Shown here in pieces: positions 22,301-60,955 of a stretch of DNA of 64,000 nt. Each line of letters starts with the position of its first letter. The first letter of the stretch is position 1. Made by a program: the position numbers and the translations under genes. The stretch spans positions 18,619,231 to 18,683,230 of the forward strand of contig JASFXZ010000014.1 of the NCBI GenBank assembly GCA_032209605.1, in the 5' to 3' direction. The DNA is from Mactromeris polynyma (lineage: Eukaryota; Mollusca; Bivalvia; Venerida; Mactridae). A model generated the notes under the pieces. The model was not told the DNA's origin. It did not search any database and saw nothing but the letters and a program-made list of their open reading frames with translations.

Positions 22301-25300
22301 ATTCAATAGAAACTGTAAACATTGAACGGTAACTTGATCAAGGAGTCCACAACTCATTTGTCTTTCAGTTGTATTTGAATACAGAATAGAAGTGAATATG
22401 CTTCACTTTTCAGTGATCAGTCACATGTTAGGTCATCTGATATGAAACACATTTGAACATCAAATATGTTAGCAATATGATTCTGAAATGTTGGTATGCT
22501 TATACATGTGATATGTTGTAATATCCTTCGTACTTGAGATTCCTTGTTAGTTAAGTCTTTCTCTTTTCTATTTGTGGTCTTAAAATGCTCAATACGTAGT
22601 CTAACCATGGGGTAGAAGTAAAATGGTTTAAATGTATACAAAATGAAAGCGATAGACTTCATGCTTTGATATTAGAAAAGGGTAATACTTGTCTGTCATC
22701 TTTCTGCCTCTGTAATCGCTTGCCTTATTGATGACTGTGATGTACATATTTGATATTACAGGGTGTTTGTCTGGATGTGTCTACTTTACCAATTGATACA
22801 TTGAGAGTTGATGCTATTTCTAGGTTTGTATAATTATGAAATTTGCACATTTAAAACTCTTAAAGTAATTTGTAACAAAATTTGTATTATCATATAGTAC
22901 TCGGTTTCAAGCCTTATCATAGAAAACATTTCAGACTCCTATCAGGTAACAGATACTTAATACTTCTATTTATCTGTAAAGAATTGTTATAATATGTTCG
23001 GTAAGAATTTTGTCTGATTAGCCTATAATGAGTTATGTTATTTTCCCTCTCATCGAACCCAATAATGACCAAAATGTATTGTTATAATCCTGTTATAACA
23101 GCATTCCAGTAATTACACCAAATTTGCTGTTGTTAATTGGGTGTAGGATTCAAATATTTAGTCTTTCCTAACTGTTACACTAAAAAAGAGGGGAAACGTG
23201 AAACTCATTTAACAGAGTGGGGAAACCATGAGGTTTGTGCTGTCATTGTCTGTATTGCAGATAATTGAATTGGCCTGTATTCTGAACTCAACTTGACATA
23301 ACTTCCTTATTTCTTTTCTGATGTTTATGTTCAGCTTACTTAGTTGTACCCCTGGTTATATGTATACTATACTCAGTATCTTAAATAGTGCTTTTCTGTT
23401 TTTCCAACTCTTCGAGAACTGTTTGTGTAATACATGGAGGCTGACCAAGGGTAGAACTCATTTGTGAATGCATTGTCAGAAATATTCACTCTTAACATGT
23501 TGTATTTGTTTGATAAGAAATATAACAAATTTGTTTGATAAGAAATATAAAAATAGACATTTGGTTTGGAACTGTGGTCAAAGTATCAGTGTGTTCTGAT
23601 CATTGTTGTATTATTATTACATGGGACGAAATCAAACACTACTGTGTTCCATCTATGCTTTCTAGTGATAGTTTAATCAAGCCAAATGGTGAGCCAGTGG
23701 TATGGATGTTGCCGTATAGAGTTAAAGATACGATGAACATGGGAGCTATACTGAGATCTTCACATTATTTTGGTGTTGACAGAGTCCTTGTACCTGCATC
23801 ATATAGGTAAGAAACCTGTCTGTATTCATTAAAGAAGATACAATTTATTTGTTGAGATTGTGTTTAATACATTGCTTCAAACAATCCAGTTTTACATGAC
23901 TGTCTATTTCCATAGTGGGCATTCCTTGATTTCCAATTAGTGTTAACTAGATCAGAGCTGGCATGATTAGCACTGTGGGTAGAGTACTAGGCTGTTACCT
24001 GGGAGGTTTGGGTTTGATTTCTGGGGAGATCATGTCCTTCGACATTTGGCTATGGTCTTCGGTTCTCCATCTCTGGTTCTTGTAGGGTAGTGTTCAGCTG
24101 CTTGCAGATAGACAAGTTAGTACTGGTTGCTAATTAATCTGGGAAACTGGTTTAGTCAACTACTCACAATAATAATAATAATAATTATTATAACAATCTT
24201 TTATTATTGAAGGTAATTTAAAGTGTATTATTATATACATCTATGTAAGCAAACTCAATTTAAGTAAGGTCTTCATGTAACAAAAATAAATCAACAACAT
24301 TTTAATGTTTACATATCCATTTATAAAATACTGAATTTCATATGACATGTGCAAATGGAAATGTATGATTGAACAATGTTGGAACACCATGATAAACACA
24401 ATAAAAAAATCATATGTATTCTGTTATACATGACTGTCAATATTCTTAGACAGCATTACCTTATGTTTAACATACATGTATATCTCAGACACTGGTCACT
24501 TTATTCAGTGATATATGCTTGCCTCATACTCTCATATATTTGAGATGAAGTGTGTTGTATATTTAGCTCTGCAATGAATTCTGTGGTCAGTAAAGCCAGT
24601 GCTGGTGCTATGGAAATAATGGATATAAAGTCTCTGAAAGATAGAAAGTCACTAGAACAATGTTTGATGGTAAGTAGTGAAAAACATATGTAATGAAATG
24701 GCACTTGAAAAAAAAATCCCCTTATTATCCCCCCTTAATTCTTCTGAGTTGTTCTTTGTGGTCGGTCACCCATTCTTTGCACCCCTATTCCCATACATGT
24801 TTACCCTTGCACCTCCTCAGTGCCTTATGTTTTACAGACTGTTGTTTTCCTATGGGTCTGAATGTTGAGGCATTGTCTTGTACATTTGGTGTTTCCTGTA
24901 ACAATTTAATCTGTCTTTAGTTCACATAAACCATTGTAACCACCAACCTCCCACAAGCTTGGGTATAACCACCAACCTTCAAATGAAAATGTAATAATAT
25001 AGAAAAGTATGTGCCTGTAATAATGTAGCAACATTTGTAATAAAACCATCCGTTCATTAAAGTTTTAACATCATTTGTAGAATAGTATGTAACAGTTTTC
25101 TACCTCAAGTGCAAAAACAACCATTGTAGAAAACTATAAATGTGGTATGGAATGAAAGTTGCTGTTTTGTGGCAGAGAAGATGTTTATGTAATACATTAA
25201 GTTTTTAGATACAGCTGTGTTATGGCTCATGACTGAAAAACAATGCTGTTTTTTGCAAATCTACAACCAGTTTGCATCATTGTTATGTAAATGCTTTTAA

Positions 25301-32567: not shown

Positions 32568-35500
32568 CTAGATTCCTTTCATCATATCGTCCATGTCCTC
32601 CTCTGGATGTCGTATATCCACGGGTATTATGCCGTATGTCTCTTCTAAGGCTTGCCGCACTCCAGGAGTCAGAAACGCTGGCATCACCGGACCAAGCTTG
32701 ATATTTTTCACACCGAGACTCAACATGGACAATAAAACAGCAACAGCCTTTTGTTCAAACCATGACAACGAAATCGACAAGGGGAGACTATTAATGTCAG
32801 TATCAAGAGCACTTGCGAGCGCCTTGGCGACCATGATTGCACCGTAGCTATCATTGCATTGACCCATGTCAAGGAGTCGTGGTATTCCAGTACTGCCAAG
32901 AGTTCCGAAGTCAATATGATTGATTCTATATTTAGCACATCCTAAGGTCAGGATAAGGGTTTGTGCTGGTAACGATGTTGCCAGATTGGTAAAATAGCTC
33001 CGTTTGTGTTCAGACCCATCACAGCCACCAATCACACAGATCCTCTGTAATTCTCCATTCTGTACAGCCTTTATAACCTACAGGTGAAAATAAATTAACT
33101 GTCATATAATGCATGATATGAAAGTCAATCCAAATAAACATACTCACCAACTTGTATATTAATCCTGTAGATATTTCATTCACAATGTAACTTCCTCTTA
33201 TTTTCAGGTTTAATTAAAGTTTAAACTTATTTATTTTACATTGATTGTGAAACAAGTTCTTACAACTTATACTAATCACGCTTGATGACTGCTTCCTGGC
33301 TACGAACCAGTACTTGCGGCAAATTTAGGGATTTAGAAGTTTGTGAACTCACGACCTTCGGATCAGGAGTCAGATGCTCTACCCCTGCGGCTCCTAAAGG
33401 AAGGTGCAGTAGTTTAAGGAGGTTAAAGTAGTGAATGATTACCAAATTCTATATGGACCGAGATTTTTACTTTAAGGATGTTCTAGCATCATTCAATCTG
33501 TAATGTCCCGTATGTACAAAGCACTAGTACTATCGACTTGTACTTGAAAGTAGGAGTTAATTATAATCATTAAAATTTGTCAATTGTAAAAGAACTAAAA
33601 TGGCACACACATACATAGATAATGCTACATCTTCAGTCAGAAGTCTGCATATAGAGATATTGCCCAAGTAACCTTCTCAGATTCTAACCTTAACACAAAA
33701 TTTAACATATTTGTGTACACAGACAAAGACAACGATCAAGATATGACAATAGCTTGTGTTTTTTTTTCAAAATGGATGAGCTAAAAACAATGATTCATTA
33801 ACTTGTAAATATAACAACTGTCCAAGTCTACCTGTTCTGCATGCTCCATAATCACTTCTCTACCAAACCCGACAACAAATTTTCTATCTTCATATTTTCC
33901 TGCCTTTTTCTCGTCAAAGCCAGGTAAACTATCAGCATGCTAGAAAAAAGCACAAATACATCATACAAGACATGTGCTTCAAAAGACAGCGATGGAAGAA
34001 ATCAAAATATGAATAAAGCATTTGTAATAAACAGTGATGAGTTCAAACGTTGTTGATAAATATGATTATATTACAGCTGACTCATCGATTATGCCTTTTT
34101 TGTCTCAAAGCACAGTATAATTATGAAATATATGTCAGTACTTAACTCAAGAGCCATACAATATGTTAATACAGTCCAACATTAAGTGTGTAAAGCTTAC
34201 TATTGTACTGGTCACTGAACATATTCAACATCAGGTATGTAAACAGTAATTGAAGTAAAATATAAGCCTTGAAATGTCCAATAAGTAAGATATTGAACTG
34301 CCTACAGCGCTACATGCCTTGGACAATTAAATATTTAACATATTGGACAGTTGTTGGCTAGTATCTATAACATGTAAAACATGTGGTAAAACTTAGTACA
34401 TGTACGAGGAATCACATGATGTATTTGTTTACTTTGTGTTCTTTCAATCACAATAACTGTTAACAACTAAGACATTAAGCTTCCAAGTAAGCTGTAAGAG
34501 ATACATATAAAAGTTTCCAGCCTCAGACCCAATGACATTATTTCACTAGAAACAATGAAATCGGACAAGAAAACTGTCAATTTGTAATAACTGTAACAGT
34601 TTAACAAACGGGCATGCTTTCAAATGATTTATAGCGAGAGGCAAAACAAAGTTTAATAATATTTTATTTGCTCTTTGGGTTATGACAATGTCTATGTCTA
34701 TAGTTATACAAGCAGAACAAATATAATTACATAAATGGGAACAAAGCAACTAGGGTTGGGCAGTAAGTTCTTTCAACATTAGTAAATGCCCTCTCTTTAG
34801 TAAAGAATAACAGAGTTATTGACAAATAGCAGAAAAATACACGGTAAGTGTGCATAAAAATATAACACTTTAAGTGAATCAATAGTACGGATAATTTCCT
34901 TATATCTGTAGACAATGTACAGGTTAAACATCTAACAGCATACCAACCTCTAACAAACTCGTCATCTGATCAGGATTATGTAAGTCAATATGTTTCACAC
35001 CATTGATGCCAGTGTCGTTCAATGTGTACAGTCGTTCTCTGTATGATTTCAGCGGCTCAATCACGCAATTAGTTGATGCCAACACGGGTCCTGGAAATGT
35101 TGCAAAATCAATCTTCTGCTGCTGCCACGCTCCACCAAAATGTCCCGCTAAACTCTGAAGACAAAATTTAGTTATGAGTAGAGTAATGCTAATTCCATGA
35201 ATAGTAGAAGTTGGCTAAATTATAGACGGAACAAAACGACGAGGATGCACAACTACACTTGATGCTTATCAATCCTGTGAATTTGGGCTGAAATCCAACC
35301 TGCATTATTGGAGATGAAGCGCGGACAAACTCCATTATGTACAAAAACATCAAAGGGCCATAACTCATTGAAAAATTATCTGAGCGGAACAAAACGATAA
35401 AGATGCACAAATACACCTGACACTTATCAATCCTGTGAAGTTTAGCTGAAATCCAACGAGCAGTATTAGAGATCAAGTGCGGACAAACTTCAAAGGTATA

Positions 35501-38500
35501 TAAACTTCAAAGGGCCATAAAAAAGGTCTGATCATTTCATGCAGTACATTACAGTTTAGCTGCATGATAATGCAGTATATCATGACACCCTGACTAATCT
35601 AGAAATGAATGTCTACCAGCCAAAATATAATTCCATCAATTCAAGCATTGGTGAAAGGCTGGAGACACAATGCTCAACAACGATTACAGTCACTTCAATT
35701 CAACAAATTGTTACCTTAAATTCATTGAGTTTTGGATACATGTGTGCCGGCATCATCTCTCCATGTGTGTACACTTTTATGTCCGTTTTTTCTGTACTCT
35801 TCAACAGCTGATACAAGTCCATCATATCATGTCCAGAAACCAAAATACACTGTAGAGGAAGCATAAACAGATAAACAGTTTATTTCCCAAATTTCTACAA
35901 CACTTCATGTACAATGACACAGATAAGATTATCGACTTGATAGAATACAGTAAAATCTCGCTTAAAGACCACCTCAATAATAAGACCACCTCAAAGTTAA
36001 GAACACACTTTTTCACGGTTTTGCTCTTTATTCAGATCCTCAATATTAAGACCACCACAATAAGAAGACCAGTTTTCAAGGGTCCAAAGGGTGGTCTTAT
36101 TATTGAGGTTTTACTGTATGTAGACATTGCCTGGACTAAGTCGCTGATATACATTATTCTGCCACCTGTTTTTTTTATATTTATTAGGGATGTCTATATT
36201 CGGTTAATTTGCTCATCGGTTAACCGGTTAATCGTTTGCATCCCTAATATTTATGCATACTGAGTTACCTGTGATATGGAAGCCTGCGGAAACTCAAGAG
36301 GTTTCCTGTGTGAACATAATGCTAACAACGGATGTTACCTCATGTTTAAAGTGAATATACTGTCCTTTAAAGAGGGTCAACATAATTTCTTGTAATCACA
36401 CTTGTGAGAAATATTCCTAGATATAATACAATTTCATGACGTATGTTGGAAAACAGTTCATGAAAAAGTCACAGATTATTAAAAAAACGTTACAATTTAA
36501 TTTTTTGTTAGTTCAGTTAGTTCACATCTAAAGTTGTGTTTTTAGGCTTGACACACAAGCCTAGTCTATATGGTCCATTGAAAGATGAACACTGATTTTA
36601 TTTCTGTTGTCTTATTTATTTACAAATGTTGATAAACTCTGACACAAACATTCAGGTTTATTCACTTTAACAAGGTTTTTCAACAGCCACTTATCAAACC
36701 TGACATATGTGAACAAAATTAATGTTAATCTAAACTACTTGATATGTATCATGATGAAAAAGGGCTGCATAGACGATAAGGCAGTTATTTTTCGTTATTG
36801 CTTGGCAATAATTTCCTTGGGGGATACCGTATCAATATTTAAGACAAATCATGCAGGAGTTAATGTTCTTGAATTGATCCCACAAATCAGTGGGTGTACT
36901 GCAGATGATTTCAGGTTACCCAAGCTGATATTTTAATATTAAAGCAAAGACGATGTCTCGTAGTATCAAAGCAACCTGCAGGCTGAAGCTGAGGCTAATG
37001 TAGACAGTGAACAACATTTCAAAGATTCCAGTCCATTCTGTGTAGCAATGATGTAATAGACAACGTAAGCTTTTACTTTGGTCTAATATTGAATCTCATA
37101 TGTTAATCCCTATAAGAGTTGTAAATACATTTTTTTCGAAGTACATGTATTTGCATCATCCAGAATATTTCCGTATCTAAGTATATGTATACCCTAAAAC
37201 TTGGTTATCCACTGACAAGTAGTATTCAATCAAATGTCAGAAGATTCAAGATCGATGCAAAAAGCAGTTATTTCTGATCTTGACAACTGGTTGATTTAAC
37301 CTAGTTTCTTATGTTAAAGTTTACAATTGCTGTATGCCGATGTTCCTGATTGCATCAAACAGGTGCATCTCACCACATGATAGTAATTTTAGATATGATA
37401 AACTGTTTAAGTTGAGTTAGACATAATCAATACTTCTGTTTGGATGAATATGTAAATCACACAGAGAATGTCTCAGCAGTACATTATAACAATTTACAAA
37501 AACATGACAAGGTCAAACATGACATATTTTGTGAACAAGATTTGATGTCTATCATAGATTTTTTTCTTAAAAGGAAGTGAAATTACTGATAACCATCAGC
37601 CAATGAGCGTTAAATTGTTTCCTATACAAATACATGTTACAATTATTGCAATTTAAATGGATAAAGTTTACACTTACAGGGCTCTAGAAATCCAGTAGCC
37701 CAATGTCCCGGACAAGTCTAATTGCCACCAGATGAGTTGGACTGGGACAAGTCTATTATGCACGCCTACCTGTTAATCCATACCTTATTCCATGCTTGTA
37801 CAACTAGCCTCCTATGTCGGACAGGTCAAAATTAAATGTACACTAGTCTGAGACAGGTGTATTTAAAGATAATTTCTAGAGCCCTGCCTTATAGGGCCTT
37901 TAAGGTACCCACCTTTCCTTCCTTTGGTGTTGTACAGACATTTGTTGGTGTTGGAATACCGAACATTCTTCTATGTCCCCTGTCCAGTAATTCCATCACA
38001 CGAAGGTTAATCGCGCCAACATCTAACGCTTTCTGAAGATTCAAACCAAGATCATGTCTATCCTCTTCCTTCGCTGTCTCCAGAAAATCCAGAGTCTGCA
38101 ATAGTCCAGTATTTCTTATAAAACATAAATGTATTTATTCATAAGCTGTGGACAAATGGTTTTGATTTATCATATACATGAACATAAGAACCAACACCTA
38201 ACATTATACATCTTCTACACATATTTAAAAGCTTCAATGACAACACAGACATACCCAAGTAAAAAAAACATTAGAATTACTTTAGTGAGATGAAAAAAAA
38301 GTAATTTTTACTCGCAATTTCTAATATTAATAAAATATATATATTATATAATAAGTTAATTCGTTAATGAACGCGTTTTCTTGACTTGTTCTGTGATGTA
38401 TTCCATCCATTAAACTTGATCCCCCTTGTTGTCCCCTAGGTTCTACTTGATTGTTTTTAATGGTTGGCTGGACCATTCCTTGGACCCCTGTTCCCATACA

Positions 38501-41500
38501 TGTTTACCCTTGCATCTTCACAGTGCCTAATGTTTTGTAGACTGTTGTTTTCCCGGGGTTCTGTGTGTTGGGAGGCATTGTCTCGTGTATGTGACATTCC
38601 CTGCAGCAACTGAATCTCTCTTCCAAAACAATACCTGTGACTCTTTGGATACATTTTTTGTACAGAACTCTAAGAAGTTCAAAAATGTATGCCCACTCAT
38701 GCAAAATCCTGCACCATGTATTATATCCAACAGTCACTGGGCAAATATTTTCATACAAAACTCGATCAAGAGTTCACATTAGCCTCACAAAATTGAATTC
38801 AAATACATGCATGCATTAATTTGAAGTAAAAAGTACTATCAAACATTATCCAGCATTTGTTCCAGTTTAAGGGGAATGGTGGCTGGGCCCTTTGAGATGG
38901 GAATATAGCATCATAAGGGAAAAAGGGGAAAATAATGTACAGATCAAAGTTTACATTTCTGTTTCCAGACCTTGTATCCTTTACCTTGTGGTGGTCAATA
39001 GTTACAGTATCATAGGATATGTTATGTAACTGATAAATGTTATTGGTTTTAGACGGTAATATAAGCAATGCTGTGGGAGAGGAAACAAGAATACTGGAAA
39101 TAAATAGTTTTCAGAGAGGGAAATGGGTCTCTGAACCAACCTTGAAAAACACTTTATCAAACTTTTGGTATTGGTATGTAAAATTCATTCAGGAAGCCAT
39201 TACAGTTAACTAGTAATAAAACAATAACCTGAAAGATGAATTTGGACACCCAAGGATCTGTCTCACCCAATGAATGAGCATGTGTCGAGTATGCTGATAA
39301 ACCTTTGATACCATATAAGGTCATATATCTAACACCATTCACATCAGGTCCATATATAGCTTGATCTTCAAGAACACCAACTTTGTCGCCTGTATAAACA
39401 AAATACATGTAATGTTGATTAGTATACAATATCATAATATTGTCATCATTTCCTTACCAATCCCAATCATTTTGACCACAAAAATGTGTCTGTATCCTGT
39501 AACCAGAACTACCCTATCATGTTACCCCCACCCCCATCATAATTGTGGTTGCTTTGAAGAGGTACGTGCAATGAGTAACCTCTGATTAACACAGGGAAGG
39601 TTATCAATTGCTTCGCATTTACAACACTGCTTCGGTCTACAGACCACTCAAAATAACTACATCACAACAACTGCAGTGTTTTAACACTGAGAAACCAGTG
39701 GGCTTGAATTGAGGACCTCTCCTTTACATGGCAATCTCTGTACCGACGGACCTAACCTGGCTGCTTACACATCTTCTGCAAGGACATGTGCTCCCTGGTG
39801 ACATATACTTTAGTCAAATAATCAAGAAAATTGTATGCCTGGATTTGGTTTCTAACTCTTAACCTCTAGATTGTCAGCCGTATTTATACTATCATATCAG
39901 TGCATAAAAACACCCAATACCCTAGGTTAAAATTCAATATTTGTTCCAAGGTCAAAACTATAAATGTAACAGTTTTCTGTCTCCCTATTCACCCACCAAA
40001 AATGCTGCACTCTAAATACTTTCTGACCCTTGACAGGAAATGTTTCAGTCAGGAGAAATACAACAGTAAAACCTCAATAATAAGACCACTATTGAGACCC
40101 TTGTTAATTGATCATACTGAGGTGGTCTTCTTATTGAGGTTAAATAAAGAGCAAAACAGTGCAAATGGACTTGAAAATTATGTCCTTAATTTTGAGGTGG
40201 TCTTAACATTGAGATGGTCTTTAAGTGAGGTTTTACTGTACTAACATGTATAAGGTGTCAATTTTCAAAAAAATAAATAACAAACTTATCTAACAACATC
40301 ACAAAGTTGGGTCTGGAGACAATGACAGTTTTAAATGTGGCCCAATCAATAAATTGAAAAATTGTTGAACAAGTTACATTTACAACTGTATGTAGCTGAC
40401 TGTATAGAGAACCTAATTCTCTTAATACTGTTAAATATTCCTTAATCACATTAATAAATATCAGACATATAAAGCATAATTAGACATTATGTGTAGCAGG
40501 GTAAAAAAATCATTTTCTTTTTTATAAATTAAATTGAATCATTTTTTACTATAAACTGTATGTTAAATTTAATAAATTAATTTGCATATTTAAACAAACA
40601 ATTTTATAAACAATTACCCAGTATGTTAAATTTATTGTCAAACGTTAGACTCAACAAAAATTACCTATGACGCTGATAAAGGCAGATAACGTGCATCTAG
40701 AACATAAATCTAGTAAGCTCCTGATTTATGCTGATCATAAATTGCAAACTAAATAAGAAATGACATTTTAAATTGGGCAATTCATAAAATAAAAACTCAA
40801 ACACTTGGGTATGATAGAAGTATGTTTGTATTCTGTATGTTTTTCTTGAAAGTAAGATATATACATGTAGACTGATGCTTAAAATAGAATTGAATGTTAT
40901 CTCAAGTGTCCATATTATATCAAAGAAAACTTTGGGCCACACTTTTACTAAGTTTTAACATTTTTTCCACTCAGTTAGTTTATGTGTATGTAAATATACG
41001 GTCGGACCTCATTTATTCAACAACCTTCTACCCAAATACAATGTACTTGGTATCATCCAAAATAAATATCTTCCTAGGCACATCAAATTGATATGGGCTA
41101 TTTGAAACCATGTACTATTCGAAATGAAATTTCGGACACGATGATTTCGAATGAACAAGGTCCTTCTGTATGTAATAACATGGGAAAAACATGAGAAAAC
41201 GTTATTTCGGTAATATTTTGCAATTAATCAAATGAAAGATGTTTTAGACAATGTACCAACAACAATGGATAAAGGTCATTAAAATATTTTACGTTCAGTT
41301 GGGCCAGATACATATTTAAAACATGATTGATGTTAAGACCATGCATGACAGGAAATATTCATTCAAATTCCCAAACTGAAACATGCATGCCAAGGTTCTA
41401 TTTCCCTACACACCCGTGAATGCTTTACTACATTGCAATGTATGATAAGAATTGATGATTGTGTTGTAAAGTTTAATGTACAATGTATTACACTTTAGGG

Positions 41501-44500
41501 CCACCTCAAGTATATTATTTTATATTTGTGTTTTTCTGTCAAGTCAGTTCATTTATGTCACAGTAAAGACACAAACACAGTGTGGGTTGGAAATGTCTGA
41601 CATTTAACCAATATCAGATGTTAATGGTTATTTTTGGTATCAGGTCGGGTAGATAATAAATAAGGGATATTTTGTATCTTTGATACCTTTTTTTTTGTTA
41701 ATGCAGTCAAGTGGTGTAAATCTGAAACAAGAGTGCAAATGGATAAATCTAATTTGCAATCACTTTCCCAAGGTCGATTTTGTAATAAACTTTATCTGAA
41801 ATTTTGTTGCAAAACATATCCCAAAATCAATATAAACATGATTATCGCTGCATGTGGTCATTACAAACTGAATGGTCCCACATGCCTCAGTTGCCTTTAA
41901 TTTATTTATCAAGTGCATTGTACATACACTTAAAGATAGAAAATATATTTTTATGATCTTTTTAGGGAAAATGTGAAGTCATTGTTGCTCGGTAATCTGT
42001 AAAGCAAACACTCCTTAGAAGTGTTTGAACTTAAAACAGAACATGTACAGATGACAGGGAACAGGGGTCTCCAAAAGAATTTGAGAGCTATAATGCAAAG
42101 TTGGCTTTGAGTATAATTGTATTTTTCTTTAGATTCTTACCGATAAAATGGCCATACATGTAGTAAGTAACAATTAATTACAGATAACTGATTGCCAGTA
42201 CAAGCATTGTCAGAACCCACTTTACACATGATGTTATCACTACATCAAGAACCTTGGGAGAACAGTATCTTTCAATTAATGTAAATGAATCACCTGCAAA
42301 CCAATACAATTTGATACTCTTTAATTGAAGTAAGAAACATGTTGCCTTGAGCAAGGTGATATATACAAAGTATTTCACAATAGTTGACATTTCTGTGCAG
42401 TCCTTCTTCGCTATGGGTCAAATGAAATTTGCCAGTAAAATAAACAGTGGTTACAATGAAGCATAGCGTAATGAGTGAACTTTACATATCTACCTTCATT
42501 TGCCAGATATTCAAGATCATCATAACCATCTGCTGGTTTCCATACAGCTGGTCCATGGTTTAGAACATCCGGTAGAGGGGTACCAGCTTTCTGATGTGCT
42601 TCCTGTAAAGCCACTCGAAACAAATCACGATATTCAACCGTTTTTCTGATGTATTCTGGGAATCTGTCTTGATCGAAGTTAACATTGGTCAGTGTGCTGT
42701 GAAATATAACAACAGAATGACTATACTGCAAATGCCATCTATAGCACTTTTAGTGCTCAAAATCTTAATGGTATATGCTGAATAAAAGTTAATGCCAATT
42801 TTATTGAAATGTAGCATTATTATATATATCAATTATCTAAATCAATTAAATCCTCAATCTGACCAATCACAGAAGGAATATTACATGACATATGACCAAC
42901 CTTTCTTGGTCAATAAATTGGCAAAGAATATGGTTTTAATTGAAGATAATCTATCAAGTCATGTGTAGAAGTTGTCACCTAACACTACAGTGCCATTTAA
43001 TAACTGGTTAATTTTCTTGCGTTACCAAAATACCATTTAAATGGAATGGAAATCAAGTATTATCTGACACAGCCTTTACAAATACTTTGGATGATATAGG
43101 CAAGTTGTATTATAAGGATGCAGTTTTCAAAAGTGAATAGAGGAATTAATCAGTAGGATGTGGCGAACTAAGTGAAAGAAAACAAAGGTTTGGAGTATGA
43201 ATAACAGGTTTGTACAGGTTTTTAGGAAAATAAAGGTTTTAAAGGATTTTCCAACCATTAAAGGTTGTGACAGGTTTTAAAGGATTTTCCAACCATTAAA
43301 GGTTGTGACAGGTTTTAAAGGATTTTCCAACCATTAAAGGTTGTGACAGGTTTTAAAAGATTTTCCAACCATTAAATGTTGTGACAGGTTTTAAAGGATT
43401 TTCCAACCATTAAAGGTTGTGACAGGTTTTAAAGGATTTTCCAACCATTGAATGTTGTGACAGGTTTTAAGGATTTTCCAACCATTAAAGGTTGTGACAG
43501 GTTTTAAAGGATTTTCCAACCATTAAATGTTGTGACAGGTTTTAAAGGATTTTCCAACCATTAAAGGTTGTGACAGGTTTTAAAGGATTTTCCAACCATT
43601 AAATGTTGTGACAGGTTTTAAAGGATTTTCCAACCATTAAATGTTGTGACAGGTTTTAAAGGATTTTCCAACCATTAAATGTTGTGACAGGTTTTAAAGG
43701 ATTTTCCAACCATTAAATGTTGTGACAGGTTTTAAAGGATTTTCCAACCATTAAAGGTTGTGACAGGTTTTAAAGGATTTTCCAACCATTAAATGTTGTG
43801 ACAGGTTTTAAAGGATTTTCCAACCATTAAAGGTTGTGACAGGTTTTAAAGGATTTTCCAACTATTAAAGGTTGTGACAGGTTTTAAAGATTTCACTAGG
43901 AGGCCTGCATTAGGTTTTATTGTTTTGCATACATAATATTAATAAGACATTTCTTTCACCTGAACATTGCTTTCTGTACAAAAATGTCACAATCTTCTGA
44001 TGCATATATACCCATGTTCACAGCCCTGTTGGCATGCATAGCCAGTCCACGGATAGCATACATTAGTAAATCTTGCAATGCAGCCACCTGGGAACTCTTA
44101 CCACAAACTCCGACAGTTACACATCCACGGCGGGACTTTGTCTGCTCACATTGAAAACAAAACATATCTGCAATACAAAGTAAAACAAGCATCATAATAT
44201 TGTTTTTTGAGAAAACTGCAACATAGCTCTAATTGTATTACTAATCAATCAATTATTTTCATCAATTTTTATGTCAAAATATAATATTACAACCAGAATG
44301 CATCAATGATGCAGGAAGAAGTAGATAATTGTACGATCTTAATAGTGTCAAGTTTTTAAAAAACTTCTTATTGGTGTGGTTTTTAAGTGAGGTTTTACTA
44401 ACTAGTGCATAAATATGGAATAATTAGGCCGAGAATTGCATTCAGGATAAGACAATGTTTAATCCTTTCAAGACTATTACAAATTTAAGACCTCTGCATA

Positions 44501-46147
44501 AGAACTACACAAGTGAGGCCACAAATAATACTGTCACAGAAAAGATACATGTATCATCTGTACTTTGTTTTTTATTTGATATTTCAGATAATTTTAGTAA
44601 CATTTTAGTTGTATTTATTTTCAACATTCATTATCTCTGGTATAGTTCCCACATTTAAAATATTTACCTCCCTTGTTCTGAATAGTCAGCCATATTGATA
44701 GGCAAATTTCCTTCAAGTTCATAGGGAATATAATACAGACGATGATAAAATAATCAGATATATATAAAAGTAACTTCATTATGCTCATGTGGCCTGATGG
44801 CTCAGAAAGTTGAAGAAAGAGTGGTTGTCACATGCAAATTCTCCTGGTATTTTCTCAATTATCATATATTTGAGAATTACTCCTATAAGTGCTTATCCTT
44901 CTTGCCTATCAAAATGGCTGATGAATAAGAACAAGGGAGGTAAATATTGTAGATGTGGGAACTATCAATTTGAGGTGAAGTTGTCAGTTACTAGTGGATT
45001 TAGAGCTGGTTTAATAGTACCGGTTGGTAACCATGGACTCATGATGGAGCACTGGTTAGATTATCTGACCGCTGTATATGACTGAAATACTGTTCAAATA
45101 TGGCATAAATCCCGAAACAGTAATACTCTTTTACTCTTGATGATTTCACAAAATCTGTGCTGCCTTACCATTACACAGTATAGAAGACTCCAGTGACCTT
45201 CGGTGTTTGCTATATATGCTTTTTAATATTTCCATGGGTGTATGTATCACAGTGTTGCAACTTAAAGTAGAGATTGGTGCCAGGACGATCAGAGGAGAGG
45301 AATTACTAAGACTGTTCCCAAAAGTCCTCTCAGTGCTTTGATTTATTTGTGATACCAAATATGTTAGTGTCTGTGACCAATCAGAATATAAGCAGCTATG
45401 TAAATCAAAAGAGACTCGGAACGATGTTGCTGATATTTTATACTTAAGCCTATTATTTATTATCAATAATTATAATGAATATAAAAAGTCAGCAACAACG
45501 TTCTGTGTCCCTTTGTACACGAGCCTCTTCATGATTAAGTCAAGTCACGGAATTAAGTAATCCGAGCCTTCTCTGTCCCTAAAACAGCCCCTTTTACGAT
45601 TTTTGATATTTCATGTTGCTGGTTAGGCCGCAAAAAAAAAAAAAAAAAAGGCTATAGGGTCAGAGAAGTCTCGGATTAGGAATTAAGTAGACATTTAATT
45701 TCGTGGTCAAGTCTATAGAGCTATAGGTCCACAAGGTGAATCTCAAGGGGCATTTTGAGATTTTTTACCAGATTTTACCATTTTAAATTCCAATTACCTT
45801 TAATTTAGAGAAATATTTACCCTTTGAACAGCCAAAATCATAGGGTCGAAATGTTGCTATTTGGAAATTCCAGGGGTCAAATGTCATCTCAAGGGTCAAA
45901 TGGAGCCCATGTAGAAGCTAGTCAAGTATGTTTGTTATTTGTAATATAATCGGAAGACATTACAAATAAAGTTGGTGTTGAAACGATTACCTGGTTTAGT
46001 CAGCGTGTTTGCCGTCGCGGCTGATGAGGCCAGCCTCTGTTGTAAGCAGAAACTGGACCTGACGTAGGCCGTACAATTTTGAAACAAATTCCGGGTAGCG
46101 ATGCTCCTCAAAACCAATTGTTTACTCTTTAACATTCCACGGAACAT
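32568..46147 (-). CDS. hcp: Mitochondrial-type hybrid cluster protein, 9 exons
   Basis: Exons, in order of translation: 46147-45991, 44167-43960, 42696-42494, 39389-39229, 38095-37913, 35849-35715, 35154-34948, 33939-33832 and 33077-32568. All are GT-AG and phase-consistent, giving 623 residues. The first 52 residues are rich in Arg, Ser and Leu with no Asp or Glu, a mitochondrial presequence; the body matches bacterial Hcp (about 550). Cys56, 59, 68 and 74 (CFQCEQT...GCVTVGVC) match the N-terminal [4Fe-4S] motif CX2CX8CX5C. Hybrid-cluster ligands are all present: His311 (SGHDMMD), Glu335 (THGEMMP), Cys379 (STNC), Cys473 (GGCDG), Cys501 (GCAKYR), Cys528 (GQCND) and Glu562 (WFEQKAV). Their spacing equals that of the Desulfovibrio enzyme, apart from a small shift around Cys528. 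The family reduces hydroxylamine or nitric oxide, or handles S-nitrosylation or peroxide; the animal substrate is unknown. Introns hold a 38-bp minisatellite and many MITEs. Confidence 0.93.
33325..33410 (-). mobile_element. tRNA-derived SINE head, minus strand
   Basis: On the minus strand GGGGTAGAGCATCTGACTCC and AAGGTCGTGAGTTCA resemble A- and B-boxes of a tRNA-derived SINE. It lies in Hcp intron 8. The body is not defined. Confidence 0.55.
35205..35520 (-). repeat. Units of the 155-bp repeat family, inverted
   Basis: Two units with ACGAGGATGCACAACTACAC, CTTATCAATCCTGTGAA, GAAATCCAACC and GGGCCATAA, the reverse complement of the units inside 15542-16350. The TATGTCTCCC ends are not seen here, so this is a fragment. 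It lies in Hcp intron 6, about 50 bp from exon 7. Confidence 0.8.
35946..36118. mobile_element. MITE family C, copy 1
   Basis: Ends TACAGTAAAATCTCGCTTAA and its complement ending GAGGTTTTACTGTA, with internal direct and inverted copies of CAATAATAAGACCACC. The TA at each end fits a TA target duplication as in Tc1/mariner-type MITEs. It lies in Hcp intron 5. Other copies: 40062-40240, 51857-52004, 54155-54247, and a fragment at 44362-44398. Confidence 0.85.
36185..36246. mobile_element. 62-bp hAT miniature with 8-bp TSD
   Basis: TAGGGATG at 36185 and CATCCCTA at 36246 are inverted ends, flanked by a perfect 8-bp duplication ATATTTAT (36177-36184 and 36247-36254). The interior holds a small hairpin around CGGTTAACCGGTTAATCG. 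The termini share TAGGGATGTC with the 1.1-kb hAT element at 608-1743. Confidence 0.88.
37678..37885. mobile_element. MITE family B, copy 2, next to Hcp exon 5
   Basis: AGGGCTCTAGAAATCCAGTA at the left end and ATTTCTAGAGCCCT at the right end, with the same internal GACAAGT motifs as 32306-32536. It ends 27 bp from the exon-5 donor side of the Hcp gene. Confidence 0.85.
38382..38625 (+). repeat. Dispersed repeat family A, copy 3
   Basis: Collinear with 4786-5042 and 24717-24925: CTTGACTTGTTCTGTGATGT, GGACCATTCCTTGGACCCCT, CATACATGTTTACCCTTGC, TTTTGTAGACTGTTGTTTTC, GGGAGGCATTGTCTCG. It lies in Hcp intron 4. The many overlapping short ORFs here are not genes. Confidence 0.65.
39640..39770 (-). 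mobile_element. tRNA-derived SINE-like segment, minus strand
   Basis: The minus strand shows GGTTAGGTCCGTCGGTACAG and GTCCTCAATTCAAGCCC, an A-/B-box arrangement with normal spacing. It lies in Hcp intron 3. Confidence 0.5.
40062..40240. mobile_element. MITE family C, copy 2
   Basis: CAGTAAAACCTCAATAATAA at the left and GTGAGGTTTTACTGTA at the right, with internal AAGACCAC and GTGGTCTT motifs. It lies in Hcp intron 3. Confidence 0.85.
40997..41170. mobile_element. MITE family D, copy 1
   Basis: The left end TACGGTCGGACCTCATTTAT and the right end GAATGAACAAGGTCCTTCTG TA form an imperfect inverted repeat; the interior has TATTTGAAACCATGTACTAT. A second, 3'-diverged copy is at 52271-52405. It lies in Hcp intron 3. 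Confidence 0.7.
43233..43889. repeat. 38-bp minisatellite, about 17 copies
   Basis: The unit AGGTTTTAAAGGATTTTCCA followed by ACCATTAAAGGTTGTGAC, repeated about 17 times. Variants alternate AAAGG/AAATG in the second half. It lies in Hcp intron 2, 71 bp from the exon-2 donor (on the minus strand). No coding function. Confidence 0.92.
44640..44967. mobile_element. 328-bp MITE in Hcp intron 1
   Basis: Long inverted ends of about 45 bp: ATAGTTCCCACAT, AAATATTTACCTCCC and TTGTTCT at the left, and the matching AACAAGGGAGGTAAATATT, ATGTGGGAACTAT at the right. The ORF at 44810-45085 overlaps it and is not a gene. Confidence 0.8.
45539..45711. mobile_element. 173-bp foldback element in Hcp intron 1
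   Basis: TCAAGTCACGGAATTAAG and AATCCGAGCCTTCTCTG at the left are answered by CAGAGAAGTCTCGGATTAGG and CGTGGTCAAG at the right. An 18-base poly-A run (45632-45649) marks the middle. Diverged arms. Confidence 0.65.
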
Positions 46148-47786: not shown

Positions 47787-49306
47787 ATATATACTGAGCC
47801 AAACAAGTTACGATACGTGAAATCAATTGGATACAATTTTATCGTGGGTCAGTAATATAAATATGTTTTTAAGCATTTTGAAAATATGGTCTTTGATACA
47901 TAATTTAAATTGATTATTATGCTTCAATTTCATTTAAACTTTTTGAAAATCAATAAGAAAATGGACTGATGAAAATGTTAAGTTCTGGAATTTGTTAATA
48001 CCGGGTGTGACCTCCCTGTGCATTCATTACAGCAGTGCATCGTCTACGCATATAATTGAAAAGTGTTTGAATATCTCGCTGTGGAATGGCATTCCATTCT
48101 TGAATAAAAAAACTCCAACTGCGCTAATGTTTGGGGATTGCGACGTCTAATCCGACGGTCCAAGGCATCCCAAAGATGTTCTATTGGGGACAAATCTGGA
48201 GAACAAGCAGGCCAATCTAGAACATTAATGTTTTGTTGGGTAAGAAAATTGCGGCATACATGTGCTGTATGGCACCTAGCATTGTCTTGCTGGAACAACG
48301 TGACGTTCACGTTAGCGTTAAGAAATGGTACGACAATTGGTGTTAAAATTTCTTCTCGATAACGTTGTCCCGTTAGATTCCCACGCACAATAACCAATGG
48401 AGTGCGATTCTGGTAGGATATTCCGCCCCAAGCCATGATACTTCCACCACCGTAACGGTACACCTCGTGCACACATACGTCTACATAACGTTCACCGACC
48501 CTACGGTATACTCTAGCACGTCCATCTCCTCGCCTCAAACAAAAACGCGACTCATCAGTGAACATTGCCGTATTCCATTGATTTCTTGTCCAATTCAAAT
48601 GTCCAGTGGCCCACTGACGTCTCAAGACGCGATGATGTTGGGTAAATATAGGCCCATGATACGGACGTCTGGCTCTTATACCACGCTCGGCGAGTCTGTT
48701 TCGGACTGTTTGAGCACTGATTCTGTTGTTTGTACGACCATGTATTACAGCAGCAGTAACAGTAGATGGAAGAAACCGGTCACGTAAGTGTGACGTCCTT
48801 ATGTGACGGTCCTGTGCAGGTGTCGTTTCACGGGGCAGAACGGGGACGGTCATTAACAGAACCAAGGGCACGAAACGGCCTAAAAGTCGGGTTATAGTCA
48901 ACCTAGACACTCCAAAGTGAGCAGCGACGTCAGCGTGACGTAAGTTTGCTTGTAGCATACCAATGGCTATAAGGCGTTGATTTGCATTCAGTCTCGGCAT
49001 AATTACAGCAGAGAAATATTGAATTTTGCCTATGTTTTCACAATACAGGTTCAAAATATGTGCAATGCGTATATTTTTATGTCGATATATGTTCATCATC
49101 ATGGGTTTCCCGTGCAGTGCGTGCAAAAATTAAAAATCCCTATTGCCAGTAACACGATATTCTACAATAATCGATAATGGTCTGTGAAAACAGGCATACG
49201 TTTAAGCAATTATGTAATCACAGTACATAATTATAACACAAGTTTAAGCTTTAAGATTTTACAAATGATCTAAGTATGTATCGTTACTTGTTTGGCTCAG
49301 TATATA
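47787..49306 (-). mobile_element. Tc1-like transposon
   Basis: Ends share TATATACTGAGCCAAACAAG as inverted repeats (left at about 47788, right ending about 49306), with one mismatch in about 26 bp; the TA-rich flanks make the exact TA duplication ambiguous. It contains one transposase gene on the minus strand. The flanks themselves carry TATCACGGAC (left) and GTCCGTGATA (right, 49340), so it may have jumped into an older palindromic element. Confidence 0.88.
47995..49000 (-). pseudogene. Tc1-family DD34E transposase, one-base frameshift
   Basis: Starts MPRLNANQRLIAIGML (ATG at 49000), then a helix-turn-helix (ADVAAHFGVSRLTITRLL) and the catalytic domain with FTDESRF, QQDNARCH and SPIEHLWD. 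The second Asp and the Glu are separated by 34 residues, the DD34E signature. The frame breaks at a run of seven A (48106-48112 on the plus strand), where six would keep the frame. After it the other frame continues with family-like sequence to a TAA at 47995. The in-frame ATG further upstream (49126) adds sequence outside the family, so 49000 is preferred. Either a recently inactivated copy or a homopolymer sequencing error. Confidence 0.88.
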
Positions 49307-49799
49307 TACACGGACCTACGTATATAAATTATGTCCGTGATAGTATGAATATAAAGCAATGGCACTTTTTGATGTCCCGGAGCGTCCCAGAATGTCCAAC
49401 GGTAATCGATTGGCATGTTTTTGTGTACAAACCAAACAAAGTGCCAAACCATTAACCATTGCTTTGAAAAAATCAACCAAGGCAGCTGCCTCGGTGCGCC
49501 TCAGCGTAGCTACGAGCCTGTTTATAAATATTTTTCATTAAGTACGCTTCTGTTAATCGATTTACTATAACCCCGATTATATATGATACGTGCTACGATC
49601 GTTATTGGTCGTCAATACAGGAATATATATCGTTAATATTGTTGACATAATACTTCTTAATACGGACATATATTGACTATCGTTACTACGCTCGGCTACA
49701 CCGACATAGATAAACACCGTGTTTACACATTTGGCTGTACTATTTATACGGTTAGCCGGTGTCAACACATGTTTTCAGTGTTAACTGCAATTATAAAGT

Positions 49800-52700
49800 A
49801 TGAGAACTTTGCGGAAGCTAAAACGATCGTACAAGGTGTGTTTGTTGCTGGTTGGATTTATTATCGTAGTCTTTCTGTTCGTTTCTCCGGACCCGTCACA
49901 CACCGTAGCTCGTCATGTTGAACGGTCGGACTCAGTTATAACATTTCCGAATGTTCACTTCAAGAAGAAACCAGTTAAAACAATCTTGAAGTGGACTGGA
50001 ATGTTTCAGGTAGACACTACAGAAAGTGATGTGAACTGTTTGAAAAAGTGTGACTACAATTGTGAAGTTACAAATGACAAGCCTGAAATCAACAAAGCAG
50101 ACGCCGTATATTTCCATTTATCGGATATTTGGACGAAATTTTGGCGAATCGGTACTAAATCTGTTATCGAATATCCAAATTATCGAAGGCCGGACCAGGT
50201 TTGGATTCTGGGTAATATGGAACCCCCGCCACACTTGTGGGGAAATATCGAAATTTTGAATGGTTTGTTTAATTGGACTAGCTGGTACAGGGAGGACGCA
50301 GACATACCGTGGCCGTACGGTGAAAAGTATAAACTGTCGGAAATGGAACAGAAACGCACTGAAGAAAAGTTAAAAAACCGGAATTTCTTTAAAGAAAAAT
50401 CAAAAGAGATAACAGCACTTATTAGTAATTGCTTTGACCCGGGACAACGGTACAGAGTTATATCTAAGATAGCAAAACATTTACAGGTGGAGGGTTTTGG
50501 TAAATGTTATTCAAAAATATGCGGAAACTCGAAGGAACCAAATTCATGTGACGATGAATTAAGAAAATACAAATTTTACTTGGCTTTTGAAAATGATCTC
50601 TGTAGAGATTACATCACTGAAAAATATTGGGGTTCTTTACAAAGGGATCAGATCCCTATAGTAAACTGGAAGTGGTTCGATAAATCGAAAGTGCTTCCTA
50701 ACTCGTACATAAATATATATGATTTCGATTCCATAGATCGATTAATTGGTTATTTAAAGCAAGTTAGTTCCAACGAAACTTTGTATAACAGCTATTTTGA
50801 ATACAAAAAGTTGTACAAAAACCAACGTTCTGGCTGTGTTATGTGTGATATATGTAAAGCTTTACATGACCAGAACAAACCAGCTCAAACCTACGTGGAT
50901 ATGGACGGCTGGGTGAGAGATGACTCCTGTGATAAAGTAGAGGTACGTGTATTACACTCGATCTGTATCATTGTTTTAGTAATCCTCAGAATCGGACGTA
51001 ATCCACTTCACTCTGAATGCATATATGTCAAGCCCCCCCCCAAAGGACATACATTATAGGATACGTAGTGGTCGAGTGCTTGAACACATTGAGTCCTAAT
51101 CCCAATGTTCTGGGTTTGAGTTCTGTTCGGAGCAGAGTTTGATCACGATCAATCCCTGAATTTGTTTGTCGCGTGTACTGGTTGGTATCCCAGGAAACAT
51201 TAAATAAAACTTGATTAATATAAGTTGTAAGAATTTGTTTTACGACAGATTTAAATTCTACATGTTTAGAAATAGCTGGCGACCCGGTTTATAAATGTGT
51301 GTTGCCCTTTGTGTTCATTATCCGTATTGTCACGCTCGCTGCCAGGTTATATTTGTATATCACTTATCTATCACATTCACATTGTGTAGTGTGTGTACTA
51401 CATGGAACATTGAACTTGAATCAATATTTAAATACTTAAATGCAAATATCGATTCAGTATTTCTGAACGTACAATTATCATGTCCTTGGTATGGGACTGT
51501 ATATGACCTTTGACCACCCGGCGTTTATTGAGATTAAAAATGATTGACTCGGTTATTCATTTACCACAATGCTTGAAAGGCGATCAATAATTAAAAAACG
51601 CTTTAATTTAACTTTTGAAACAGGTACTGTATGTTAGGACTTAGAATGAAAATAATATTTTGACATTGAAGTTGTATAGCCGACGAATCCAAATTTCACA
51701 GTCGACTAAAAGCTATAGCTTAAATTAAATATCAAGGACCTATAAATATACGTCTTTTTTCACGACTGGTTATGTGTACAACATGGTCACGTGAGCTAAC
51801 ATAATTGTCATTATAAAATGTATTTTCTGTAAATACACGTAATTATATAAATATTCAACTCGTTTAAAGACCACATCAAATAACTCATTTTTCAAGAAAC
51901 AATTTTTCTTGGACACATTGAACTCATTAAGAAGACTTACCTCACTAATAAGGCCAACTTCCTTCACCCCCCCCCCTTGTTTTATTACTGAGATTTCCCT
52001 GTATTTTATACTTCAAAATTTACATTCATATTGTCATGCTTGACATGGATCAAGTTATTTGACTGAACATGTAAACAAATATGAAATAAAACGCATTTTT
52101 TTCTGTGAGAATGTGATCAGGGGAGGTAAGTATGTACTAGGCTCCGGAGATTGTCACAAGTTATCTCCCCTTCTATACCCCTTCTATAGTTTATGTAATA
52201 ATATATATATATATATAGCGTTTACGTGTTCAAATAACTTGATTCAAGTCATGCATAGCAATCGTATCATATACATTCAGACCTCGTTTATTCGACAACC
52301 TTCTATCCGCATACTTGGTATAATCCGAAATAAATTTATGCACGTCGAATTGAAACGGCTATTCGAAACCATGTATTATTCTAAAAAAAATCTGACCCGT
52401 AAATGCATCATGTCAGTATAGCTTCGTATGGTCGTTGATTCTTGTTTATAAAAATGTATATATTAACATATTTCAAAAGTGTGCTTTGATTCTATTACAA
52501 ACTGTAAACTTAGAAAAGTTATTGTCCAAAACGTTAATGTATAGAGCTTTGATATTTGGTGTGTAGCGTTGTGTATTGGTTCCATTACATAATGGTGTAA
52601 ATGATTAAGTTTCGTCAAAAACCATGGCCGCCGGGGTGGGGACTTCACTATAATGTAATTTCACTATATCCACTGTTCAAATGGATTTTGACCAAACTAC

Positions 52701-59500: not shown

Positions 59501-60955
59501 AAGATCAGTCGTTAACGATGCTTGCACTAAACTGAGAGGCACATATCTTAGTATTCTCAATAGTGGTATTAACCCGTACGGATTGAATCCAATTTCAATG
59601 CGTATAATGTACAATGCTGTGGTGATTTCTAAAGCACTTTATGGCTGCGAACTGTGGAATGCATTATCAAATACGGATCTTTTATGTTTAGAGCGCTCGC
59701 ACAGATTCTGTGTTAAAAATATGCAGTCACTTCACCAAAGTTCAGCAACTGATTTCTCCTTTTGTACATTGAATGTTGAGTCTATAGAAACCATCATCGA
59801 CCGGAGGAAACTTCAGTTCTTGTGTCAACTTTGTCGTTTGCCAAATACATATCTTGCCAAGAGAATATTTAATGACAGAATTATACATTATTTTAATTAT
59901 GATCAACTAACTCGTGGATTCGTTCCGGATATATACCGTCTGCTGAAGAAATACAACCTCTCTCATTATCTACATGAATATACCAAAGAAGGAAGATTTC
60001 CATCTAAATATGCATGGAAAACAATATTGACATTGAATGTTACGTCGCATGCACGGACGCTAGGCTATGATACTGTTGTTGGTCGGTATCCAAATGCATT
60101 TACTTTGGGGATACTGTTGAGGAGTGATAACCCATGTACATTGTGGATCCTTTTACGGCATAACCCTCGACTATCTTATTTGGTCAAAAAACTGATGTCC
60201 GCTGTCTCGAAACTCTTTTCAAGAAAATATATAAACATGTGCCAAAAGTGTGGATTATTGAATGATGACATCTTGACACACTGGTTTTGTTTTTGTCGAG
60301 GCAATGAACATAAACGGCAAATATTGTGGGACACCATGATTACAAGTTTAGACATCAATCAACTCACCAGTCTAATTTCCATGTCACCTATTGAACAGTG
60401 TGATTTTATCTTAAGCCTCGCAATAGCAACTGACTGTCGAAGTCTAGAACATTACAAAATTGCTTCCTATGTATGTAGTATGTGCTAATGCATAGCTATT
60501 ATGTGAATGTATTAATATGTTCTAGTTGTTTGTTACCTTGTATTTTATCCACACTGATGATGGTCTAGCATTTTCGATTTCGCAGTCTAGGCTTTCTACT
60601 ATATAGTGTGGAATATCACATGTTATAAGGGCTGACTCTTTCGCTAAGCATCCCCTTGGGCTTATGCTTTCGAATTCCAGTTTATCATATATAAGACTAA
60701 GTGAGATGCTGTTAGAGATGGCGTCAACCCACTTACTTACTTATTATGTTTTATGTAACTAATATTAATTGCTTAATATCTGTACATGTATAATATATGC
60801 ATGTGTCTATATGTAATTGTATTTACGATTTATATACATGTATGTATATGCGTGTATGTTTACATATATGTATGTATGTTATTTGTAATTTTTGGAATGT
60901 ACATGTACATGTATTTTGCTCTCCATATCTGGAGGAAATAAAGTTATATATATAT
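56590..60955 (+). mobile_element. Nearly full-length APE/RT LINE
   Basis: Contains an ORF1-like remnant (56590-57022, broken between two frames), a long ORF2 (57015-60488) and a 3' UTR ending in a hairpin (CTCCATATCTGGAG), an AATAAA at 60937-60942 and a short (TA)n tail. The layout is that of Jockey/CR1-like elements. The 5' border is not defined. No target duplication was identified. Confidence 0.85.
57015..60488 (+). pseudogene. LINE ORF2: endonuclease and reverse transcriptase, one stop
   Basis: One frame of 1157 codons apart from a single TGA at 58365-58367. The first part is an APE-type endonuclease: LHIMTWNATGI, ISEHYLYPQN, VILLGDFNATYD and a late SRHRPVVCV. The second part is the reverse transcriptase: GKSSGYDLIQYEHL, NYRAITLTSVVLKLFE, FLDGRKAFDTVWHDG (first Asp, near 58963), GTRQGGKSSPILY and TVADDMLLISY (catalytic Asp pair, near 59262-59270). 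A Cys/His cluster, MCQKCG...HWFCFC, closes the protein near 60240-60300. The TGA lies in a GTATGAGATCGC context and could be a CGA-to-TGA change. Very little decay otherwise, so the insertion is young. Confidence 0.9.

What the first reader, a model, noticed from the sequence alone, without database searches (positions are those of the whole stretch)
32568..46147. Intact nine-exon hybrid cluster protein gene in an animal genome
Hcp (prismane, hydroxylamine reductase family) is known mainly from anaerobic and facultative bacteria, archaea and some anaerobic protists. Here a complete copy sits among ordinary animal genes with eight phase-consistent GT-AG introns, so it is not bacterial contamination. 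All seven hybrid-cluster ligands are present (His311, Glu335, Cys379, Cys473, Cys501, Cys528, Glu562). Spacings of 24, 44, 94 and 28 residues match those I recall for the Desulfovibrio protein, so it can probably assemble the 4Fe-2S-2O cluster. It implies oxygen-sensitive Fe-S-O redox chemistry (hydroxylamine, NO, S-nitrosylation or peroxide) in an animal that may face low oxygen or sulfide.
Basis: partly seen in the sequence, partly recalled or inferred. Interest (0 to 1): 0.93.

Follow-up and report, generated by a model that had tools for sequence, protein, structure and literature searches.

The report
Bivalve mitochondrial hybrid cluster protein gene
A clam-like animal carries, in its own nuclear genome, an intact gene for an iron-sulfur-oxygen enzyme best known from anaerobic microbes; it appears to be sent to mitochondria, where it may remove nitric oxide when oxygen runs low.

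Summary
Nine minus-strand exons (46147-32568) join through eight phase-consistent GT-AG introns into a 623-residue hybrid cluster protein (Hcp) with all seven hybrid-cluster ligands and a class I N-terminal cysteine motif (Pfam Prismane 5.4e-134). It is an animal gene, not contamination: the top database hit is the clam Mactra antiquata (84%, no indels over 570 residues), five of eight introns share repeats with the flanks, and it lies in a clade with named bivalve, annelid and brachiopod Hcps (100/100). New here: exon 1 encodes a mitochondrial-type presequence, and the bacterial-type start MFC lies at the start of exon 2. I infer a mitochondrial Hcp that reduces NO to N2O under low oxygen; this activity is untested. 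Family membership is routine; an animal, apparently mitochondrial member is not. In the literature searched I found a Manila clam sentence (2017) and a Riftia cDNA suspected of bacterial contamination (2007). New member of a known kind, with unusual biology.

The parts
45991..46147 (-). Exon 1: start codon and mitochondrial-type presequence (residues 1-52 and first base of 53)
   Evidence: gene model; no D/E and 7 K/R in the first 45 residues
43960..44167 (-). Exon 2: opens with two bases of codon 53 and then ATG of M54-F-C, the bacterial-type start; carries the four-cysteine N-terminal motif
44103..44159 (-). C56-x2-C59-x8-C68-x5-C74, class I N-terminal [4Fe-4S]-type motif (coordinates worked out by hand)
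42494..42696 (-). Exon 3
39229..39389 (-). Exon 4
37913..38095 (-). Exon 5
35715..35849 (-). Exon 6: hybrid-cluster ligands H311 and E335
34948..35154 (-). Exon 7: ligand C379
33832..33939 (-). Exon 8
32568..33077 (-). Exon 9: ligands C473 (position of the D. vulgaris C406), C501, C528, E562 and the stop codon
35155..35714 (-). Intron 6, carrying (35227-35520) a repeat family also present at 15617-16219 (75-87% identity)

Best explanation
Shown: an intact, spliceable nuclear gene encodes a class I-motif hybrid cluster protein with every cluster ligand, in a genome that the tree places among bivalves next to Mactra. Strongly indicated: the product is imported into mitochondria, because exon 1 supplies a presequence in front of the bacterial-type start. 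Inferred mechanism: in the matrix the N-terminal cluster takes electrons from a general low-potential donor (I suggest mitochondrial ferredoxin) and passes them to the 4Fe-2S-2O site, which reduces NO (2 NO + 2e- + 2H+ -> N2O + H2O) when oxygen falls. This would relieve NO inhibition of cytochrome oxidase and protect matrix Fe-S enzymes during shell closure or burial. My odds: real animal Hcp gene 0.98; mitochondrial 0.9; holds the hybrid cluster 0.85; NO reduction as main role about 0.5.
For: Gene model; Pfam; no ligand substituted in 269 aligned rows, only gaps in 1-3 rows at nine of the eleven positions; AF2 model of the Mactra orthologue, pLDDT 85.6, residues 1-49 under 50, matching Hcps 8cnr, 1e1d, 1e2u, 1gn9 and 7de4 at query TM 0.81-0.82 and target TM 0.92-0.94. 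Presequence: 22 of 28 rows of the animal set have 53-72 residues before the MFC-type start; in the 25 rows with any extension the first 45 residues or fewer hold 175 K/R and 36 D/E in 1082, against 1623 and 1841 in 15636 residues from that start onward in all 28 rows. Function: passages of PMC10210160 report Hcp as a high-affinity NO reductase with poor hydroxylamine and peroxidase kinetics, and no known donor for class I; passages of PMC7205294 report NO formation in haemocytes and gills of the clam Arctica islandica and inhibition of gill respiration and CytOx by an NO donor at low oxygen; passages of PMC7412212 place one Chlamydomonas Hcp (HCP2) in mitochondria.
Against: No enzymology for any animal Hcp was found. 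The NO reductase data are bacterial, with E. coli class II and its partner Hcr the main case, and the physiological role of class I is disputed. The Arctica passages report similar NO fluorescence in gill pieces at normal and low oxygen, use millimolar NO donor on CytOx, and present NO as useful for metabolic depression; they do not mention an NO reductase (0 occurrences). A partner reductase was not sought in this genome (genome search did not complete). 3 of 28 rows lack an extension and 3 have short ones, at least two of them (P0025, P0018) not starting with Met. Import is predicted from composition only.
Confidence: 0.5

Rival explanations
1. Mitochondrial protein S-nitrosylase and NO signalling enzyme: it auto-nitrosylates and passes NO to protein thiols, setting metabolic depression rather than removing NO.
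For: An S-nitrosylase role for bacterial Hcp (Seth et al., as told in passages of PMC7412212); the equivalent of the D. vulgaris cluster cysteine C406 is present as C473.
Against: The same passages note redox potentials that do not fit NO oxidation; no partner interactome is known to me in animals.
Confidence: 0.2
2. Hydroxylamine reductase or peroxidase: detoxifies hydroxylamine or H2O2 in mitochondria.
For: The family has both activities in vitro (passages); the 2007 Riftia paper cites hydroxylamine reductase activity in rat liver mitochondria.
Against: KM in the millimolar range and low turnover were judged unphysiological, and MtHCP showed no measurable peroxidase activity, though a weak one could not be ruled out.
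Confidence: 0.12
3. Electron valve or redox/sulfur role: disposes of reductant from ferredoxin during anoxia or handles sulfide or persulfide, with NO chemistry secondary.
For: HCP4 of Chlamydomonas is proposed as a release valve for ferredoxin electrons (PMC4773151 passages); many bivalves and Riftia live with sulfide (recalled).
Against: I found no direct evidence in any mitochondrion.
Confidence: 0.13
4. Bacterial or other contaminant, or chimeric contig.
For: Hcp is little known in animals and was suspected as contamination in Riftia.
Against: Eight introns, intron repeats shared with both flanks, orthologue on a 40.9 Mb Mactra contig, animal clade 100/100.
Confidence: 0.01
5. Origin (a separate question): not inherited from the holozoan ancestor but moved from another eukaryote, or a bacterium, into an early lophotrochozoan.
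Against: Animal plus choanoflagellate-like rows as one clade is not rejected (p-AU 0.288), nor with the Opistho-2 row added (p-AU 0.069); the group was picked after seeing a first tree, and not rejected does not mean shown.
Confidence: 0.4

Closest known systems
Mactra antiquata predicted protein (ACF0H5_017340) and the Mercenaria, Mya, Dreissena, Mytilus trossulus and Ruditapes proteins
   Same: Orthologues: 66-84% identity, same N-terminal motif, a similar presequence; the Ruditapes entry is partial (374 aa)
   Different: Named automatically (hydroxylamine reductase-like, HCP-like, hypothetical); no study of them found in the searches listed
E. coli Hcp (class II, PDB 7de4)
   Same: Best sequence score among solved structures, 461 bits; same SWFEQKA stretch at the last ligand
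   Different: CX2CX11CX6C motif with an insertion proposed to dock Hcr; the window protein has CX2CX8CX5C and no insertion
Desulfovibrio and Methanothermococcus Hcp (class I; 1e2u, 1gn9, 8cnr)
   Same: N-terminal motif and fold; first four ligand spacings of D. vulgaris
   Different: Chains begin within four residues of MFC, so no presequence; last two spacings differ by 2 and 1 residues (D. vulgaris); lower score than E. coli
Chlamydomonas HCP1-4
   Same: Eukaryotic, organelle-directed; HCP2 mitochondrial (passages of PMC7412212)
   Different: Four copies, three predicted in the chloroplast; C. schloesseri and other green rows form their own branch; the C. reinhardtii proteins themselves were not in the tree
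Riftia pachyptila hydroxylamine reductase cDNA EF648468 (PMC2175520, section 17 read)
   Same: Branchial plume cDNA assigned to the Hcp family
   Different: Authors wrote that it could be bacterial contamination; its sequence was not examined here

Membership tests
Hybrid cluster protein (Prismane, PF03063) | Whole-length family match | tested here: met
   E 5.4e-134, profile 1-511 of 513
Hybrid cluster protein (Prismane, PF03063) | Seven hybrid-cluster ligands H-E-C-C-C-C-E | tested here: met
   corresponding residues 244/268/312/406/434/459/494 in 1e2u; that these are the ligands is recalled
Hybrid cluster protein (Prismane, PF03063) | Hcp fold | tested here: met
   AF2 model of the 84% identical Mactra orthologue, not of the window product itself; query TM 0.81-0.82 to Hcps
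Hybrid cluster protein (Prismane, PF03063) | 4Fe-2S-2O cluster actually present | not testable with these tools
   needs EPR/Mossbauer or a crystal structure
Class I Hcp | CX2CX(7-8)CX5C, no class II insertion | tested here: met
   C56, C59, C68, C74; (8,5) spacing in 247 of 269 rows, (11,6) in 13, other or none found in 9; that the classes differ by a 4-residue insertion is from passages; the class formula is recalled
Class I Hcp | Separate phylogenetic group from class II | tested here: inconclusive
   best solved match is class II E. coli; passages say class II is a subgroup of class I
Mitochondrial matrix protein | Basic, acid-poor N-terminal presequence | tested here: met
   (composition); low-confidence N-terminus in the orthologue model; no dedicated predictor was run
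Mitochondrial matrix protein | Import shown | not testable with these tools
   needs microscopy or fractionation
NO reductase | NO to N2O turnover | not testable with these tools
   no assay possible

The most novel reading that the evidence does not exclude
Bivalves, annelids and brachiopods keep an ancestral mitochondrial NO reductase of the Hcp type, lost from the usual model animals. Their own mitochondria turn NO into N2O during shell closure and burial, so part of the N2O released by such animals would be host-made rather than microbial, and NO-induced metabolic depression would have a built-in off switch.
Probability: 0.25. Interest if true: 0.9.

Novelty: new member of a known kind. 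Interest (0 to 1): 0.62.

Why it matters
[quoted passage not shown] A conserved, apparently mitochondrial Hcp in three animal phyla would put an iron-sulfur-oxygen redox centre into animal mitochondria. It would offer a concrete candidate for how hypoxia-tolerant bivalves end NO inhibition of cytochrome oxidase, and make host-made N2O testable. It also suggests re-examining transcripts such as the Riftia one, once suspected to be contamination.

Tried and rejected
Contamination or chimera: rejected. Pseudogene: rejected; no stop or frameshift in the joined frame and zero indels against Mactra. Hypoxia-response motif RCGTG (both strands) in 2 kb upstream: 4 sites against 2.6 expected from the whole window, not informative. 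tRNA scan and Rfam scan of the window: nothing. Alpha-proteobacterial origin (proposed for algae, passages of PMC7412212): not resolved; the Acidocella and Methylocystis rows (alpha-proteobacteria by recall) lie on the bacterial side. Shared intron positions in other molluscs or annelids: no animal genomic DNA in the collections offered, so not tested. RNA-seq of the window's species: not available; relatives have long reading frames on contigs of 2.2-2.5 kb (P0002, P0004, P0005, P0010), shorter than the 13.6 kb gene here, which I read as spliced transcripts. Whole-genome search: not completed. Papers: 10 searches, nine of them with an Hcp or hydroxylamine reductase term; searches matched over 6,000 papers each by loose terms and only 15 and 20 were listed; open-access library only. 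PMC9255765 was searched for the family names and holds none.

Full report
Observation. I rebuilt the gene from raw sequence. The nine minus-strand exons are 46147-45991, 44167-43960, 42696-42494, 39389-39229, 38095-37913, 35849-35715, 35154-34948, 33939-33832 and 33077-32568 including the stop. Pfam finds one family, Prismane, at 5.4e-134. The ligand spacings are 24/44/94/28/27/34 here and 24/44/94/28/25/35 in D. vulgaris 1e2u.

Is it an animal gene? The top hit of a search over about 5.8 billion proteins (7,999 candidates scored, 120 listed) is Mactra antiquata, on a 40.9 Mb contig, 84.2% identical over 570 residues from MFC onward with no gap column; the match is also gap-free across the first junction just before MFC. 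Named relatives are eight bivalves (Mactra, Mercenaria, Mya, Dreissena, Mytilus trossulus, Sinanodonta, Solemya, Ruditapes), the brachiopod Lingula and the annelids Owenia and Helobdella. Five of eight introns (3, 4, 5, 6, 8) match repeats elsewhere in the window, on the left for 4, 5 and 6 and on the right for 3, 5 and 8. Of ten reading frames chosen among 208 of 60 aa or more, Pfam named an actin, a GT10 fucosyltransferase, a Tc-type transposase, a LINE-type endonuclease and reverse transcriptase and, below its cut-off, a SpoU methylase piece; four gave nothing.

Phylogeny. A first FastTree of 269 rows put the window in a 28-row animal-type clade at 100; a quick IQ-TREE of 104 rows agreed (28 rows, 100). 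The careful tree (94 rows x 568 columns, LG+C20+F+G4) gives 100/100 to 24 animal-type rows: the window, 10 rows with animal names, 11 unnamed rows among them, and an unnamed sister pair (P0025, P0123). Window plus Mactra has 100/99. Solemya and then Sinanodonta are the deepest bivalves, the second with weak support (81/14), broadly as in the species tree, which I recall. The 21 rows labelled bacterial lie on one side and the 73 others on the other at 100/100. Of these 21, 12 are loci of titled bacterial records and 2 bear bacterial names; 7 were labelled by me from length and position. The animal clade's sister is unresolved (50). Holding animals and nine choanoflagellate-like rows together is not rejected (p-AU 0.288); with the Opistho-2 row p-AU is 0.069. 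Two of those nine rows have EukProt headers in a style I recall from choanoflagellate transcriptomes, seven have no name, and the group was picked after the first tree. That Opistho-2 is a filasterean is recalled; one search found no such name.

Anatomy. Intron 1 falls at residue 53, so exon 1 encodes only the N-terminal extension and exon 2 opens with the bacterial-type start MFC. The extension has 7 K/R and no D/E in its first 45 residues. In the 25 of 28 rows of the animal set with any extension, the first 45 or fewer residues hold 16.2% K+R and 3.3% D+E, against 10.4% and 11.8% from the MFC-type start onward. Exon 1 is also the least conserved exon against Mactra (21 of 40 aligned residues; the others 76-89%), as expected of a targeting sequence. 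Six rows depart: P0004 and P0022 start at MFC, P0025 is cut short, and P0005, P0018 and P0123 have extensions of 24-37 residues.

Active site and fold. Across 269 aligned rows no ligand is substituted: H311 and E335 are present in all 269, the other five in 268 with one gap, and the N-terminal cysteines in 266-267 with gaps. Those rows were gathered by similarity to animal Hcps, so this shows consistency rather than an independent test. The N-terminal spacing is (8,5) in 247 of 269, (11,6), the class II type, in 13, and something else or not found in 9. AlphaFold of the Mactra orthologue gives pLDDT 85.6 with residues 1-49 under 50; the top eleven PDB matches are all Hcps and ranks 12-50 are CO dehydrogenases.

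Mechanism. Passages of PMC10210160 say that hydroxylamine and peroxide activities are too weak to be physiological, that high-affinity NO reduction is shown in bacteria, that the E. coli insertion may dock Hcr, and that class I Hcps have no known donor, so a general donor is plausible; they also note high production in a methanogen without a notable NO source, which questions NO as the only substrate. Passages of PMC7205294 report NO formation in Arctica islandica haemocytes and gills and inhibition of gill respiration and cytochrome oxidase by an NO donor at low oxygen; gill NO fluorescence did not rise at low oxygen, and the authors see NO as useful for metabolic depression. Joining these, a matrix Hcp reducing NO to N2O is the most economical function. 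The join is mine and untested. That bivalves release N2O, usually credited to microbes, is recalled; one search gave only a listing on this.

What is known. The one place that names the family in the Manila clam genome paper lists hydroxylamine reductase/Ni-CODH among families found in the clam but not in the octopus, snail and oyster compared (PMC5499747 passages). The Riftia paper (PMC2175520; section 17 read, other passages seen) wrote that its cDNA could be contamination. Passages of Andersson 2006 (PMC1484493; 12 of 13 places shown) discuss protists and prokaryotes for this gene, not animals. I found no study devoted to animal Hcp in ten searches of an open-access library, which misses most subscription papers; van Lis 2020 (FEBS J) was seen only as cited by others.

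Verdict. Real, intact, animal, shared by lophotrochozoan phyla, and apparently mitochondrial. A new member of a known family in an unexpected place, with a testable physiological role.

Noticed in passing
7627-8790 +: Single-exon, full-length actin reading frame (Pfam Actin 1.7e-142), divergent to my eye; may be a retrocopy or a fast-evolving actin-like gene.
   Followed up: partly
43234-43893: 38-base tandem repeat, 17.4 copies at 97% match, inside intron 2 of the Hcp gene.
   Followed up: no
15617-16219 and 35227-35520 (intron 6): Repeat family with several copies at one place and one in intron 6, 75-87% identical; unidentified.
   Followed up: partly
57012-60485 +: LINE-type element: endonuclease and reverse transcriptase frames with one stop codon between them.
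   Followed up: no
48047-49129 -: Long Tc/mariner-type transposase frame (DDE_3, HTH_Tnp_Tc3_2).
   Followed up: no
49797-51056 +: Long GT10 fucosyltransferase reading frame 3.6 kb beyond the Hcp start.
   Followed up: no
23526-23807 +: Possible exon of a SpoU-type rRNA methylase (E 0.002, below the Pfam cut-off).
   Followed up: no
P0168 and P0256: Hcp with a second Pfam domain: PF01966 in P0168 and PF02082 in P0256; no name given by their sources.
   Followed up: no
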